A DNA stretch of 64,000 bases, taken from Clostridia bacterium. GTDB lineage: Bacteria; Bacillota; Clostridia; Christensenellales; Aristaeellaceae. The stretch covers positions 1 to 64,000 of the forward strand of contig JAFWSH010000005.1 of assembly GCA_017519405.1 (NCBI GenBank), read 5' to 3'. Both the position numbers and the translations under genes were made by a program. Of the stretch, positions 52,310 through 57,150 are shown piece by piece. The notes beneath the pieces are model-generated. The model worked only from the letters and a program-made list of their open reading frames with translations, did no database searches and had not been told where the DNA came from. Within the stretch, counting starts at the first letter, position 1. Every line of letters starts with the position of its first letter.

Positions 52310-53569
52310 TTACCGCACCTGCCCGTCCCCCGTGACAATATACTTCCAGGTGCACAGTTCCCTGAGGCCCATGGGGCCCCGGGCGTGGAGCTTCTGGGTG
52401 GAGATGCCCATCTCGCAGCCCAGGCCGAACTCCCCGCCGTCGGTGAAGCGGGTGGAGACGTTCACATACACCGCCGCGCTGTCCACCTGGGCGGTGAAGG
52501 CCTCCGCCACGGCCTGGTCGGCGGTGACGACGGCGTCGGAGTGGTGGGTGGAGTGGGCGGCGATGTGGGCGATGGCCTCCGCCGGGCTGTCCACCACCCG
52601 GACGGCCAGGATGTAGTCCAGGAACTCCGTGTCAAAATCCTGCTCCCCGGCGGGGGTGCCGGGGATGATGGCCGCGGCCCGGGGGTCCAGGCGCAGTTCC
52701 ACCGGGGGCTTCCCCTCCCGGGCCCGCTCCGTCACCAGCTTCTCCCGCAGCCGGGGCAGGAAGTCCGCCGCCACGGCGCTGTGCACCAGCAGCACCTCCT
52801 CCGCGTTGCAGACGGAGGGGCGGCTGGTCTTGGCGTTGTTCACGATGTCCAGGGCCATGGCCAGGTCCGCGGCGGCGTCCACATAGACGTGGCAGATGCC
52901 GGTGCCGGTCTGGATGCAGGGGACGGTGGCCTCCTCCACGCAGGCGCGGATCAGACCGGCACCGCCCCGGGGGATCAGCAGGTCCACCAGGCCCTCGGCG
53001 TGCATCAGCTCCCCGGCGCTGGCCCGGCTGGTGTCCTCCACCAGCGAAACCAGACCCTCCGGCAGGCCCGCAGCCCGCAGGCCCCCATGGAGGGCCTCCA
53101 CCACGGCCGCGGCGCTGCGGTGGGCCTCCTTGCCGCCCCGCAGCACGCAGGCGCTGCCGGCCTTCAGGCACAGGGCCGCCGCGTCGGAGGTGACGTTGGG
53201 CCGGGACTCATAGATGATGGCGATGACCCCCATGGGAGAGAGCCGCTTCCGGATGCGCATGCCATTGGGGCGGGTGAAGTCCTCCACCGTGACGCCCACG
53301 GGGTCCGGCAGGGCCGCCACCTCCCGGATGTCGTCGGCCATGCCCCGGATCCGGGCCGCGGTGAGGGTCAGCCGGTCGATCATCACCGGGGAGATCTTCT
53401 CCCGGGCCGCCTCCACGTCCGCCGCGTTGGCCGCCAGGATCACCTCCGTCCCCGCCACCAGGGCGTCCGCCATGGCCAGCAGGGCGGCGTTTTTCTTCTC
53501 TGTGGTGAGCCGGGAGAGCATGGGCCGCAGGGCCGCCGCCTCCCGGAGAATCTCCGCTGTGCTCCGCAT
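52310..53569 (-). CDS. proA: glutamate-5-semialdehyde dehydrogenase
   Basis: A 419-residue enzyme for the second step of proline synthesis. [30 protein letters not shown] and [16 protein letters not shown] (catalytic Cys) are diagnostic, and [20 protein letters not shown] is the conserved C-terminal stretch. Full length. It lies 3 bp after proB at the end of the minus-strand operon that starts with the response regulator. Confidence 0.95.
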
Positions 53570-53572
53570 GGT

Positions 53573-54343
53573 TTACACCTCCATCTTCAGGAAGCGGGTG
53601 CCCACAGGCTCCCCCGCGATGATGCTGTACAGCTCCTCCGGCCGGCTGCCGTTGCTGATCACCACGTCCATGCCGGCGTGGGTGGCGATCTGGGCGGCGT
53701 GGAGCTTGGTGGTCATGCCGCCGGTGCCCAGGGAGGAGCCGGCAGCCCCGGCCATCTCCAGCACCTCCCGGGTGAGACGGGGCACCGTGTGCAGCAGCCG
53801 GGCGTCGGGATGGGTGCGGGGATCGGCGGTGTAGAGGCCGTCGCAGTCCGTGAGGATCACCAGCAGCTCCGCCCGGGCCGCCTCCGCCACCAGGGCGCTG
53901 AGGGTGTCGTTGTCCCCCACGCTGATCTCCTCCGTGGCCACCGTGTCGTTCTCGTTCACCACGGGCAGGGCGTGCATCTCCAGCAGGCGGAAGAGGGTCT
54001 GCTGCAGGTGACCCCGGCGCACGGGATCGGAGAGGTCGTCCGCCGTCAGCAGCAGCTGGGCCACCACGTGGTTGTACTGGCCGAAGAGCCGGTCGTAGGT
54101 GTACATCAGCTCGCACTGGCCCACCGCCGCCGCGGCCTGCTTGCCCTCCGTGTCCCGGGGGCGCTCTCGCAGGCCCAGCTTGCCGGCTCCCATGCCGATG
54201 GCGCCGGAGGACACCAGGATCACCTCGTGACCGGCGTTCTTCAGGTCGCTGAGCACCCGGCACAGCTCCTCCACCCGCCGGATGTTCGTCAGCCCCGTGG
54301 GATGGGCCAGGGTGGAGGTCCCCACTTTCACCACAATACGCAT
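53573..54343 (-). CDS. proB: glutamate 5-kinase, short form
   Basis: An amino-acid-kinase-fold enzyme of about 256 residues, first step of proline synthesis. RIVVKVGTSTLAH begins the fold, VSSGAIGMGAGKLG and PVVNENDTVATEEISVGDND bind substrates, and SSLGTGGMTTKLHAAQIA is the conserved loop. The C-terminal PUA domain of longer forms is absent. ATG 54343 has GGAG at good spacing; 54352 (MENMRIV) is the alternative. About 20 bp after the PHP phosphatase. Confidence 0.94.
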   Translation of the reverse strand: MRIVVKVGTSTLAHPTGLTNIRRVEELCRVLSDLKNAGHEVILVSSGAIGMGAGKLGLRERPRDTEGKQAAAAVGQCELMYTYDRLFGQYNHVVAQLLLTADDLSDPVRRGHLQQTLFRLLEMHALPVVNENDTVATEEISVGDNDTLSALVAEAARAELLVILTDCDGLYTADPRTHPDARLLHTVPRLTREVLEMAGAAGSSLGTGGMTTKLHAAQIATHAGMDVVISNGSRPEELYSIIAGEPVGTRFLKMEV

Positions 54344-54362
54344 ATTCTCCATCTCCGTTTTC

Positions 54363-55178
54363 TCATTTGAGGGGCCGCGTCTCCCATTGGACCCGGCCTG
54401 ACGCGCCGTGGCGCAGCACCAGGGCGTGGTCGAAGCCGCAGGCGCGGGCCGCCGCCTCCGCCTCGGGGAAGCCGCCGGCCAACAGCGTGGCCTGGTGGGC
54501 GTCGCTGCCCAGGCAGATCTCCCCGCCGATCTCCTTCAGATACCGCAGCAGCGGCCGGGCGGGATAGAAGTCCCGCCGCCTGCCCCGGTTGAAGGCCCCG
54601 CAGTTGATCTCCACCACCGGGCACTTCGCCACCAGGGCGGCCAGGGCCTCCCGGGCCGGGTTCAGATACCGGGGGTCCTCCTCGTCGAAGCGGGGCGCCT
54701 GGTGGTTGAACCGGGCAATCAGGTCGAAGTGGCCGATGATCTGGCAGTTTGTTTTCTCCCAGACCCAGGCCTCTTCCTCATAGTATGCAGTGCACATCCG
54801 GTACCAGTCCCCGCCGAAGCCCTCCCGGCACAGGGCGTCGGACTTCTCCACACTCCAGTCCACCGCCTCCGTCAAACCGTTCGGCGCAGAGAGGAAGTGG
54901 GTGGAGCCGATGATGTACTCCGCCCCCGCCACCGTCGCGGGATCCCACCGCTGGTCCAGCTCCACCCCGCAGAGGATGTCCAGCCGTCCCCGCCACTGTG
55001 CCCGCAGGGCCGCGATCTCCGCCAGATAGCCGGGGAAATCCATGTGGTAGGTGGGGTCCATGTGCCCGGAGAAGCCCAGGGCCTCAAAGCCCGCGTCGAA
55101 GGCGGCCCGGGCCATCTCCGCCGGGGTGTTCTTCCCGTCGCACAGGGTCGTGTGGGTGTGGAAGTTGGCCCGGATCAT
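54363..55178 (-). CDS. PHP-domain phosphatase (histidinol-phosphatase family)
   Basis: A 271-residue PHP-fold metalloenzyme. The metal ligands are in NFHTHTTLCDGKNTPAEMAR (HxH), GFSGHMDPTY (His), ILCGVELDQ (Glu), YIIGSTHFL (His), IIGHFDLI (His) and CLGSDAH (Asp and His), the HisJ/HisK pattern. It could dephosphorylate histidinol phosphate, but no other his gene is in the window, so another phosphate ester is possible. The start overlaps the CARF-nuclease stop by 4 bp, implying coupled translation. Confidence 0.85.
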   Translation of the reverse strand: MIRANFHTHTTLCDGKNTPAEMARAAFDAGFEALGFSGHMDPTYHMDFPGYLAEIAALRAQWRGRLDILCGVELDQRWDPATVAGAEYIIGSTHFLSAPNGLTEAVDWSVEKSDALCREGFGGDWYRMCTAYYEEEAWVWEKTNCQIIGHFDLIARFNHQAPRFDEEDPRYLNPAREALAALVAKCPVVEINCGAFNRGRRRDFYPARPLLRYLKEIGGEICLGSDAHQATLLAGGFPEAEAAARACGFDHALVLRHGASGRVQWETRPLK

Positions 55179-56356
55179 TTCTCCTCCTCCCGCCGCAGAC
55201 GGCTCACCAGGCTGCCGGAGGCGAGGTCCTGCCAGTCCACCACCTCGATGCCCAGCTCCGCCGCCCGGCGCCGGACCGGGGAGCCCGACCGGGGCGCGGG
55301 GCCGGAGGAGACAATCATGGCCCGGGCATACTTCCCGCCGAAGCGGTCCCGGAGGATGGCCAGCTCGTTGAGGGCCTCGGTGTGGATCTCGCAGGTCTTG
55401 CAGCTGATGAACAGCGGCTGGATCCCCTGCACCGCCATCACGTCGATCTCGTTGGTCACCGCGTCCCCCCGCTTCTCCCCCAGGGCGCTCACGCCGCTGT
55501 GCCAGTCCACCACGGCGCTGAGCACCACGTCGTCGAAGCAGCCCGCCTCCCGGCAGCACTTCCACACATACAGCTCCAGGGCGGAGCCCATGTCCCGGAG
55601 CCAGAAGCGCACCACCTCGTCCTGGAAGCGGAAACGGAAGCTGTCCTCCTCCACCTCCAGGTCCAGGATCAGCCCCGCCCGGGCCAGGGCCCGGAGCAGG
55701 TCCGTGTCGATGGGCACCCGGCCCCGGTCCGCCTTCACCATCCGGGGGCCTTCCGCTGTCAGCTCCCCCGGCGCGGCGGAGGACACCCGCTGCAGGCAGG
55801 CGATCTGCCGGTTCCACACCCCCCGGAAGGCGCTGTACACCTCAAAGGCCCGGTCGATCCGGGTGAGGTAGTCCTCCAGCACCCGGTTGTCCTCCCGCCC
55901 GGGCTTCAATTCACCCCCGGCCATCAGAAAGCAGGAGGCGGCGTCCAGGCGCACCGTGCAGGGCAGGGAGCGGGCGAAGGGGGCGTTCTGGATCTCATAG
56001 AAGGTGTTGTTCTTCCGGCTGTAGGTGAAGACGGGGTGGTCCCCGGCCACGGCCCCGGCGGCGAAGAGGGTGGCGTCGGTGCCCCCCGAGATATCCAGGG
56101 CGCAGTCCGCCTTCTCCCCCAGCACCCGTGTCAGGGCCTGGGCGATCTTCCCCGCGTCCAGCAGGCTCACCGGGACGAAGGTCAGCTTCACCGGAACCTC
56201 CCGGCGGCGGAAGTAGCGGGTCAGGCCCTCCCGCAGGTGCTTGCTGCCGGCGGCCTCCGGCGGGCAGATCAGCACCGTCTCCTCCGGGCGGAACATCTCC
56301 GTGGCCAGCACATTCTCAATAGGCGAGTCGTCGTAGAGCTCGATCAGGGTCTTCAT
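55175..56356 (-). CDS. Can2/Card1-like CARF-nuclease (DUF1887 type)
   Basis: A 393-residue protein with the architecture of Card1/Can2 effectors of type III CRISPR immunity. Residues 1-140 form a Rossmann-like CARF domain; ALDISGGTDATLFAAG (86-101) is the counterpart of the ring-nucleotide loop, but the usual GGTK lysine is Asp94. A helical/winged linker follows. Residues 255-393 are a PD-(D/E)XK nuclease: LELYVWKCC, NEIDVMAVQG (Asp305), FISCKT (Ser318 where Card1 has Glu, Lys320) and the closing RRRAAELGIEVVD. Such proteins cut nucleic acid when a cyclic nucleotide binds. No CRISPR array or cas gene is present. It overlaps both neighbours by 4 bp, so it is made with the response regulator and the PHP enzyme. 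Confidence 0.8.
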   Translation of the reverse strand: MKTLIELYDDSPIENVLATEMFRPEETVLICPPEAAGSKHLREGLTRYFRRREVPVKLTFVPVSLLDAGKIAQALTRVLGEKADCALDISGGTDATLFAAGAVAGDHPVFTYSRKNNTFYEIQNAPFARSLPCTVRLDAASCFLMAGGELKPGREDNRVLEDYLTRIDRAFEVYSAFRGVWNRQIACLQRVSSAAPGELTAEGPRMVKADRGRVPIDTDLLRALARAGLILDLEVEEDSFRFRFQDEVVRFWLRDMGSALELYVWKCCREAGCFDDVVLSAVVDWHSGVSALGEKRGDAVTNEIDVMAVQGIQPLFISCKTCEIHTEALNELAILRDRFGGKYARAMIVSSGPAPRSGSPVRRRAAELGIEVVDWQDLASGSLVSRLRREEEK

Positions 56357-57051
56357 GGCGTCACCACCTCGAATTTATAGCCCACCGTCCACACGGTGAC
56401 GATGTCCCAGCCATACTTCTCCCGCCCCGGGAGCTTCTCCCGGATGCGCTTGATGTGCACGTCCACCGTGCGGGTGGACTCCACCCGGACAGAGAACCCC
56501 CAGACCCGCTCCAGCAGCTCATCCCGGGTGAACACATGCCCCGCGTGCTCCGCCAGGAAGCACAGCAGCTCCAGCTCCTTGGGGGGCATGTCCACCCGGC
56601 GGCCCTCGTAGTACACCTCATACTCGTCCAGGCTGATGGTCAGCCCCGGGAAGGACAGGGTGCGGTGCTCCTCCTCCCCGCCGCCGCTGCGCCGGAGGAC
56701 GGCCTTCACCCGGGCCACCATCTCCTTGGGGTCGAAGGGCTTGGTGATGTAGTCGTCCGCCCCCAGCTCCAGGCCCAGCACCTTGTCGAAGGTCTCGTCC
56801 CGGGCGGTGAGCATGATCACCGGGATGGAACCGGTGCGGCGCACCGCCTTGAGCACCTCCATGCCGTCCACCCCGGGGAGCATCACGTCCAGCAGCATCA
56901 GGTCCGGGGGATTGCGCCGGAACTCCGCCAGGGCCTCGTCTCCCCGGTCGCTCAGCCGCACCGTGAAGCCCTCCTTCTCCAGATAAATCTTCACCAGCTG
57001 GGCAATGCCGGGATCGTCATCCACCACCAGGATGTCAGGCTTGTCTTTCAT
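56353..57051 (-). CDS. OmpR-family response regulator, no adjacent kinase
   Basis: A 232-residue two-domain regulator. Receiver, residues 1-120: LVVDDDPGIAQLV (acidic pair), LMLLDVMLPGVDGMEV (phospho-accepting Asp), VIMLTARDE (Thr) and DDYITKPFDPKE (Lys). The C-terminal winged helix includes PPKELELLCFLAEHAGHVFT and STRTVDVHIKRIREKL. The ATG at 57051 follows GGGGAAGAG; a TATACT box is at 57108-57113 with a poor -35. It overlaps the CARF-nuclease start by 4 bp. No sensor kinase gene is adjacent, so its input is unknown. Confidence 0.92.
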   Translation of the reverse strand: MKDKPDILVVDDDPGIAQLVKIYLEKEGFTVRLSDRGDEALAEFRRNPPDLMLLDVMLPGVDGMEVLKAVRRTGSIPVIMLTARDETFDKVLGLELGADDYITKPFDPKEMVARVKAVLRRSGGGEEEHRTLSFPGLTISLDEYEVYYEGRRVDMPPKELELLCFLAEHAGHVFTRDELLERVWGFSVRVESTRTVDVHIKRIREKLPGREKYGWDIVTVWTVGYKFEVVTP

Positions 57052-57150
57052 GTGATCTCTTCCCCGATCCGTTGGTCTGTGTGTTCCGGGGAAACCTCCC
57101 CGTATACAGTATATCACAATCCGCCCGGGATGGACGTCCCGTGCACAAAA

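What the first reader, a model, noticed from the sequence alone, without database searches (positions are those of the whole stretch)
55175..56356. Can2/Card1-like CARF-nuclease in a stress/proline operon with no CRISPR
The protein matches the Card1/Can2 plan (N-terminal CARF, C-terminal PD-(D/E)XK nuclease, closing helix with RRRAAELGIEVVD). Two functional positions differ: GGTK is GGTD (Asp94), and the catalytic Glu of ExK is Ser (ISCKT, Ser318-Lys320) while Asp305 is kept. No repeats or cas genes occur in 64 kb, and it is coupled by 4-bp overlaps to a response regulator and a PHP phosphatase, then proBA. It may be a nucleotide-sensing nuclease, or a dead-nuclease sensor, used outside CRISPR.
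Basis: partly seen in the sequence, partly recalled or inferred. Interest (0 to 1): 0.8.

Follow-up and report, generated by a model that had tools for sequence, protein, structure and literature searches.

The report
Orphan CARF nuclease without CRISPR
A bacterium related to rumen Clostridia carries a CRISPR-type sensor-nuclease gene although no CRISPR signal-maker was found in its genome; its cutting site looks complete in a rearranged form, and its sensor pocket appears rebuilt for a different, still unknown signal.

Summary
The gene at 55175-56356(-) is real: a DUF1887/Card1-Can2 protein, CARF sensor plus PD-(D/E)XK nuclease. Its family is found in 48 of 150 genomes of its taxonomic family and does not track Cas10: 1 of 48 carriers and 3 of 102 others have Csm1 over the cut-off. 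It is under purifying selection.

Ser318 is not decay: it is common in this superfamily, including proteins inside type III loci, and is nearly always paired with a Glu on the next helix (E331, 81 of 81 here), where ExK members have Lys or His. This looks like a permuted, complete site. And PHP/proBA adjoin the gene in none of 80 relative loci.

The CARF pocket is the real departure: the four cA4 contacts that Can2 shares with Can1 are replaced (D9, P32, D94, T111). The nearest CRISPR-linked relatives with acidic pockets lie in type III-B loci, two of three with CorA, whose Cas10 aligns with SAM-AMP-synthase residues.

Best reading: an orphan, ligand-gated, probably active nuclease with a non-cOA ligand, possibly SAM-AMP-like. 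Structure prediction was off; geometry is inferred.

The parts
55175..56356 (-). orphan CARF-PD-(D/E)XK nuclease gene, 393 aa
   Evidence: relatives
55937..56356 (-). N-terminal CARF domain (about residues 1-140)
   Evidence: PADLOC CARF4 model over 1-389. Weak profile hit of A2 to the CARF part of Can2 7bdv: whole-sequence E 0.0032, 1.1 for the stretch 4-125. No structural test
56339..56341 (-). E6 codon, invariant acidic residue of the clade
   Evidence: invariant in the 80 rows of A2 and the 8 rows of A3
56330..56332 (-). D9 codon, at the place of Can2 Ser19 (cA4 contact)
   Evidence: 81 of 81 rows; aligned to Can2 Ser19; contacts from PMC7969007 passages
56075..56077 (-). D94 codon (GGTD), at the place of Can2 Lys99 (cA4 contact)
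   Evidence: D in 77 and E in 4 of 81 rows; alignment
55175..55594 (-). C-terminal PD-(D/E)XK nuclease domain (about residues 255-393) with stop
   Evidence: PF09002, residues 256-374
55442..55450 (-). E303-x-D305, catalytic ExD motif (Can2 E276/D278, Cdn1 E308/D310)
   Evidence: 81 of 81 rows; papers, passages
55397..55405 (-). S318-C-K320, the ExK position with Ser for Glu
   Evidence: 81 of 81 rows; same in type III-linked proteins
55364..55366 (-). E331 codon, proposed relocated catalytic Glu on the next helix
   Evidence: 81 of 81 rows; pairing with Ser318; that it lies on a helix is inferred
56353..57057 (-). OmpR-type response regulator, 4-bp overlap with the nuclease gene
54363..55178 (-). 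PHP-domain (HisJ-like) phosphoesterase, 4-bp overlap
53573..54352 (-). proB-like gene (glutamate 5-kinase), downstream
   Evidence: ORF; name from reading the sequence, no family search run
52310..53569 (-). proA-like gene (glutamyl phosphate reductase), downstream
   Evidence: ORF; name from reading the sequence, no family search run

Best explanation
It is an orphan, apparently chromosomal member of the DUF1887 (Card1/Can2) family that works as a ligand-gated, metal-dependent nuclease without CRISPR. Shown by sequence: the two-domain plan, a conserved catalytic set (E261, E303, D305, K320) and no tie to Cas10. Inferred: a CARF homodimer binds a small ligand and closes the two nuclease domains, as in Can2, Card1 and Cdn1. 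Catalysis uses a permuted site in which E331 on the helix replaces the strand Glu of ExK. The ligand is not a cyclic oligoadenylate, because the pocket has lost the four cA4 contacts shared by Can1 and Can2 and become acidic. A ligand with local positive charge is favoured, SAM-AMP or another SAM-derived or metabolic nucleotide. Activation would nick DNA or cut RNA, in defence or stress.
For: PF09002 in the nuclease part and PADLOC CARF4 over the full length. E303, D305, S318, K320, E331, E261 and D9 are invariant in 81 rows. S/E versus E/K pairing at 318/331 in 41 rows: 34 S+E (11 of them window-family rows), 4 E+K, 1 E+H, 1 S+Q, 1 S+K. The S+E site occurs in proteins inside type III loci: G497, G727 and G893 and Nostoc and Anabaena plasmids. 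Permuted PD..K..E sites are known in CCGG restriction enzymes (PMC6344858, PMC551604; passages). cA4 contacts of Can2 (S19, T42, K99, Y118; PMC7969007 passages) align with D9, P32, D94, T111, with P32 and T111 invariant in 80 rows. CARF in 48 of 150 family genomes, Csm1 over cut-off in 4, both in 1; Cmr2 over cut-off in 0 of 150. Purifying selection.
Against: In Cdn1, E323A (the S318 position) abolishes activity. The 318/331 pairing is only weakly tested against phylogeny: 2 independent pairs on well-supported branches, median sign-test p 0.5. Two rows break it (L143 S+Q, L017 S+K), and both lie in the acidic-pocket clade. VC1899, also an orphan with acidic pocket residues, did not nick plasmid and had only weak RNase activity, not regulated by cA4. 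No ligand source is identified; mCpol was found in 0 of 150 genomes. Two of the three type III-B relatives have Ser, not Asp, at position 9.
Confidence: 0.55

Rival explanations
1. The nuclease is dead. The protein is a ligand sensor or scaffold, or a decaying CRISPR relic.
For: Ser replaces a Glu that is essential in Cdn1 (E323A abolishes activity). The orphan VC1899 is nearly inactive and was called possibly 'cast adrift'. Of 48 family genomes, 3 have the gene in pieces (one of them on two contigs) and 1 has an in-frame stop.
Against: S318 is paired with E331 and shared with type III-linked relatives. E303, D305 and K320 are invariant in 81 rows. The nuclease domain has a lower dN/dS than the CARF domain (0.07 against 0.11). 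43 of 48 family genomes hold it in one clean frame.
Confidence: 0.2
2. It still senses cyclic oligoadenylate, made by a Cas10 missed in the incomplete genome or by another host enzyme.
For: The characterised CRISPR-linked members of the family sense cA4 or cA6. The own genome is 80.3% complete.
Against: The four cA4 contacts shared by Can1 and Can2 are all replaced and the replacements are themselves conserved. The Can1 contact variant K90E is inactive. Cas10 does not track the gene: Csm1 over cut-off in 1 of 48 carriers, Cmr2 over cut-off in 0 of 150, mCpol 0 of 150. The profiles can miss diverged Cas10.
Confidence: 0.07
3. Operon-specific regulator of a proline/histidinol stress response with the response regulator and PHP phosphatase.
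For: 4-bp overlaps in the window. A response regulator lies within two genes in 10 of 79 loci, the window included.
Against: Only three other loci have a response regulator over 70% identical to the window's, and there it lies two genes upstream; the six others are about 33% identical and lie downstream. In those three genomes an aldo/keto reductase-like gene, not PHP, adjoins the CARF gene. PHP, proB and proA matched none of the 16 neighbourhoods nor any predicted gene of 80 loci.
Confidence: 0.06
4. Orphan SAM-AMP receptor: the CARF pocket specifically reads SAM-AMP or an analogue made without Cas10, or delivered by a type III system in some strains.
For: The 17 rows with E6 and D/E94 lie on one side of a 97/89-supported branch (with three further rows) and include three proteins in III-B loci (G497, G727, G893). 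Their Cas10s share the residues that align with B. fragilis D70/E151 (PMC10600005 passages). Two of the loci carry CorA and a protein that I read as a DEDD-type exonuclease.
Against: No Cas10 in the window's genome at this sensitivity. The D70/E151 alignment scores only 17.7 bits. Position 9 is Ser in two of the three. Co-location does not prove which molecule the CARF protein reads. The clade test on 15 rows is neutral (p-AU 0.173).
Confidence: 0.12

Closest known systems
VC1899 (PDB 1XMX), orphan DUF1887 protein of Vibrio cholerae
   Same: CARF + PD-(D/E)XK, no type III CRISPR link, acidic residues where cA4 would bind (Asp9, Asp11, Asp34; PMC7969007); best PDB hit of the family profile, E 4.3e-6
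   Different: VC1899 has ECK with Lys on the following helix and Arg96 at the place of D94; the window family has SCK + E331 and Asp/Glu at 94
Can2 / Card1 / Cdn1 (type III ancillary nucleases)
   Same: domain plan; ExD motif (Can2 E276/D278); equivalents of Cdn1 E274 and K325
   Different: no Cas10 partner found, the four cA4 contacts shared by Can1 and Can2 replaced, strand Glu replaced by Ser with Glu further on
DUF1887 proteins of PDB 8q3y-8q44 and of Nostoc/Anabaena RAMP-type CRISPR loci
   Same: Ser at the ExK position and Glu on the following helix
   Different: GGTK pocket kept, CRISPR-linked (Nostoc, Anabaena), catalytic Lys replaced by Ser or Thr
CARF nuclease of III-B loci G497 and G727 (with CorA) and G893 (no CorA seen)
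   Same: E6, D/E94, S318 + E331; one side of a supported branch with the window family
   Different: embedded in a cmr operon with Cas10; position 9 Ser in two of three
CCGG-family restriction enzymes (Cfr10I, NgoMIV, AgeI)
   Same: permuted PD..K..D/E active site with the acidic residue relocated (passages)
   Different: sequence-specific restriction enzymes, no CARF

Membership tests
DUF1887 / PF09002 CARF-nuclease family | Card1-like endonuclease domain above curated cut-off | tested here: met
   34.1 bits against 26.4
DUF1887 / PF09002 CARF-nuclease family | N-terminal CARF domain | tested here: met
   PADLOC CARF4 models full length; no structural test was possible
Can2/Card1 type III effector | genetic link to type III CRISPR (Cas10) | tested here: not met
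   Like-for-like: 0 of 48 carriers have any listed Csm1 match on the same contig, against at least 11 of 18 other PF09002 genomes of the phylum within about 31 kb (those matches score 24-66 bits, below the cut-off of 170)
Can2/Card1 type III effector | conserved cA4 contacts (Ser19, Thr42, Lys99, Tyr118 in Can2) | tested here: not met
   D9, P32, D94, T111
Can2/Card1 type III effector | ExD...ExK active site | tested here: inconclusive
   ExD and K present; Glu of ExK is Ser with E331 as proposed substitute
Can2/Card1 type III effector | cOA-activated nuclease activity | not testable with these tools
   needs purified protein
Permuted PD-(D/E)XK site (CCGG type) | acidic residue moved from the strand to a spatially adjacent helix | tested here: inconclusive
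   sequence pairing in 41 rows; no model
SAM-AMP signalling effector | co-located SAM-AMP-type Cas10 | tested here: not met
   no Cas10 over cut-off in the own genome; a Cas10 with the aligned acidic residues only beside relatives G497, G727, G893

The most novel reading that the evidence does not exclude
There is a clade of CARF domains that read SAM-AMP-like, locally cationic messengers through an acidic pocket. Its CRISPR-linked branch works as a second SAM-AMP effector beside CorA. Its orphan branch, to which the window gene belongs, is a CRISPR-free nuclease switch driven by a SAM-derived nucleotide that these Clostridia make by an unknown enzyme.
Probability: 0.15. Interest if true: 0.87.

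Novelty: new variant of a known kind. Interest (0 to 1): 0.6.

Why it matters
It gives a large, clean set of CARF nucleases that are apparently chromosomal, under purifying selection and not linked to Cas10, so the question of what CARF domains sense outside CRISPR becomes directly testable. It also corrects how the active site of this family is read: Ser in ExK, which would be called dead, is probably a permuted working site in much of the sampled family, CRISPR-linked members included. Finally it points to CARF nucleases sitting in III-B loci of SAM-AMP type. In the passages I saw of four papers (PMC10600005, PMC12255297, PMC11229360, PMC12669027) SAM-AMP sensing is described for CorA and not for a CARF nuclease; the other papers listed I did not open on this point.

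Tried and rejected
Dead nuclease by S318: rejected as the main reading after the S+E / E+K pairing and dN/dS, but kept as a rival. CRISPR array in the window or Cas10 over cut-off in the genome: none found, with 80% completeness as a limit. Mobile or phage origin: window protein against 72,556 plasmid and 50,697 phage records at E 0.01, no match; viral contigs, 42 pattern matches and no relative. Conserved operon partner: not found. Stand-alone mCpol polymerase as ligand source: 0 of 150 genomes, though this profile reached its cut-off in none of the 14 control genomes. Fold search: not possible without a model. The independent-pairs test of the 318/331 pairing is underpowered (2 pairs). In one search the 15 acidic rows held as one clade were neither rejected nor shown (p-AU 0.173); L145, L137 and, L195 may lie inside. 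Rows dropped: L128 (partial protein, E+K) from the trees and the 41-row count; L090 (an over-long frame) from alignment A2 and the dN/dS pairs; two of 81 loci (L059, L076) gave no CARF gene. Of the 48 carriers one (G079) matches over the nuclease part only, inside a 1263-aa ORF. One search did not list all of its matches, so 11 of 18 is a lower bound; one of the 11 (G432) has stops in its PF09002 match. The CARF classification paper (doi 10.1093/nar/gkaa635) is not held, so what it says about CRISPR-free CARF4 proteins is unread. The RNase Y label for the weak Csm1 hits in my notes is a guess, not tested, and that those profile positions are an HD domain is recalled.

Full report
What is there. 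The ORF at 55175-56356 on the minus strand encodes 393 aa. Residues 256-374 match Pfam PF09002 Card1_endonuc (E 2.3e-8, 34.1 bits against a cut-off of 26.4), and residues 1-389 match PADLOC CARF4--CARF_PDDEXK (E 2.3e-38). The nearest solved structure by sequence is VC1899, 1XMX (E 0.0023 with the single protein; 4.3e-6 with a profile of 80 relatives). The gene overlaps an OmpR-type response regulator and a PHP-domain gene by 4 bp each.

How widespread. In 60 genomes (relatives, the own one included) 17 have the protein; of the 11 other genomes in the genus 9 have it, and the two without are 66% and 72% complete. In 150 genomes of the taxonomic family 48 have a match: 43 in one clean full-length frame, one with an in-frame TAG, three in pieces (one of them on two contigs), and one matching over the nuclease part only, in a giant ORF. 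A scan of named genomes gave 201 relatives, of which 80 were kept, titled mostly as Clostridia, Clostridiales and Lachnospiraceae assemblies; many titles name rumen or other ruminant gut sites. No relative was found in plasmid, phage or viral collections. dN/dS over 36 non-independent pairs has a median of 0.11 (CARF 0.11, nuclease 0.07). This is a maintained, apparently chromosomal gene.

CRISPR link. Csm1 over cut-off occurs in 4 of 150 family genomes; one of them (G133, 6% contamination) also has the CARF gene, on another contig, so 1 of 48 carriers against 3 of 102 others. Cmr2 over cut-off: 0 of 150 (this profile also misses the cut-off in those four). As a positive control, 19 of 348 genomes of the phylum have a PF09002 match. 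Of the 18 apart from the window's own, at least 11 have a Csm1-profile match on the same contig within about 31 kb; all 11 are below the cut-off (24-66 bits), as expected of other Cas10 types, and one (G497) was confirmed as III-B Cas10. By the same loose test 0 of the 48 carriers has any listed Csm1 match on the CARF contig. Two more of the 18 (G501, G477) have a CRISPR-like array in the fetched stretch. The window's family is therefore unusual in this respect, but orphan members are known: VC1899 (PMC7969007, Discussion read) and Daci_4198 (PMC4012209, section 9 read).

Active site. Passages of PMC12825302 name E274, E308, D310, E323 and K325 as the Cdn1 catalytic network, with E308A, D310A and E323A inactive. 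I take the window equivalents to be E261, E303, D305, S318 and K320; this mapping is by motif and order, since no alignment with Cdn1 itself was made. In 81 family rows E261, E303, D305, S318, K320 and E331 are all invariant. In 41 rows, residue 318 with residue 331 reads S+E in 34 (11 of them window-family rows), E+K in 4, E+H in 1, S+Q in 1 and S+K in 1. The proteins of PDB 1xmx, 7bdv and 8bao show E+K in the printed alignments. The S+E type includes proteins inside type III-B operons (G497, G727, G893), in named loci with RAMP genes (Nostoc pNsp_a with csx19; Anabaena) and the solved 8q3y group. Five of the 41 rows, L167 and L168 among them, have also lost the Lys. Relocation of the carboxylate with retention of the Lys is established in CCGG-family restriction enzymes (PMC6344858 and PMC551604, passages). 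I infer a permuted, working site.

Ligand pocket. PMC7969007 (passages) gives Ser19, Thr42, Lys99 and Tyr118 as the cA4 contacts conserved between Can1 and Can2. In the profile alignment to 7bdv (a weak hit) and in my own alignments the window has D9, P32, D94 and T111 there: D9 in 81 of 81 rows, D94 in 77 with E in the other 4, P32 and T111 in all 80 rows of A2. E6 is also invariant. Can1 K90E, a variant at a key cA4 contact, is inactive. A cOA ligand is therefore unlikely.

The SAM-AMP lead. On the tree, the 17 rows with E6 and D/E94 lie on one side of a 97/89-supported branch (three further rows, L137, L145 and L195, lie on the same side). They include proteins of G497, G727 and G893. In G497 the neighbours are CorA (E 3e-79), Cmr1, Cas10, Cmr3, Cmr4, Cmr6 and Cas6. 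In G727 CorA (1.2e-75), Cmr1 and Cas10 are confirmed in the same order. In G893 Cas10, Cmr1 and Cas6 are found, but no CorA was recognised on the 16-kb contig (not every ORF was scanned). G497 and G727 also encode a ~180-aa protein that I read as DEDD-type from its sequence; library support is weak (PADLOC DEDDh, E 0.0068, for G497; none for G727). The best PDB hit of the G497 Cas10, 9lq5_B (E 4.3e-22), has the DD of its GGDD at 328-329, D at 70 and E at 151 (counted by hand). These match the B. fragilis numbers in PMC10600005 (passages), where D70N/E151R abolishes SAM-AMP synthesis and E151R alone has a limited effect. That 9lq5_B is the B. fragilis protein is my inference from this numbering. 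The aligned residues are D75 and E159 in G497, in a stretch that scores only 17.7 bits, and both are conserved in all three Cas10s. PMC10600005 argues that SAM calls for a less basic site; an acidic CARF pocket would fit the same logic. Against: position 9 is Ser in G727 and G893, and co-location is not binding.

Context. The response regulator-CARF-PHP-proBA order is not conserved. In three genus members (G005, G009, G010) the order is a MutS2-like gene, the response regulator, an aldo/keto reductase-like gene, CARF (MutS2 and reductase named by reading the sequence). A response regulator lies within two genes in 10 of 79 loci, the window included; three of the others are over 70% identical to the window's and six about 33%. 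PHP, proB and proA match no predicted gene of the 80 loci. I give little weight to a proline or stress operon.

Verdict. An ordinary member of DUF1887 by descent, but an unusual variant by inferred function: orphan, non-cOA pocket, and an S+E site shared with part of the family. The active-nuclease reading is favoured over the dead one. The SAM-AMP reading is a lead with named tests.

Noticed in passing
L169:84-10387 (G497) and L192:112-9506 (G727): CorA-type III-B loci that also carry a CARF-nuclease beside CorA and a small DEDD-like protein; possible CARF-type SAM-AMP effector.
   Followed up: partly
L122, L124, L127, L131 (one taxonomic family, f110) and L165:7998-9155 (Peptoclostridium plasmid): A second clade of SCK + Glu DUF1887 proteins with SNG(N/H)P in place of GGTK; no Cas10-type match is listed near the four f110 genes (a capped list), and no cas gene is annotated within about 8 kb of the Peptoclostridium one.
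   Followed up: partly
L195:4558-8562 (G779); similar large ORFs in G766, G817 and G796; L145 (G079): Giant 1200-1400 aa ORFs with a C-terminal Card1-like nuclease; the G779 one has a weak N-terminal protein-kinase match, below the cut-off. G778 and G819 carry shorter ORFs of 876 and 1003 aa.
   Followed up: partly
L166:2374-4104 (Klebsiella quasipneumoniae plasmid): A DUF1887 CARF protein of the ExK + Lys type next to AAA ATPase genes, a PP2C phosphatase and a gene annotated as a kinase, on a plasmid typed as conjugative.
   Followed up: no
L035:8708-10027 (G046): A distant orphan relative of the window gene followed by a two-AAA, M41-peptidase protein.
   Followed up: no
L134, L138, L163, L167, L168: DUF1887 proteins with GGTK in which the catalytic Lys of SCK is Ser, Thr or Ile while Ser and the helix Glu are kept.
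   Followed up: no
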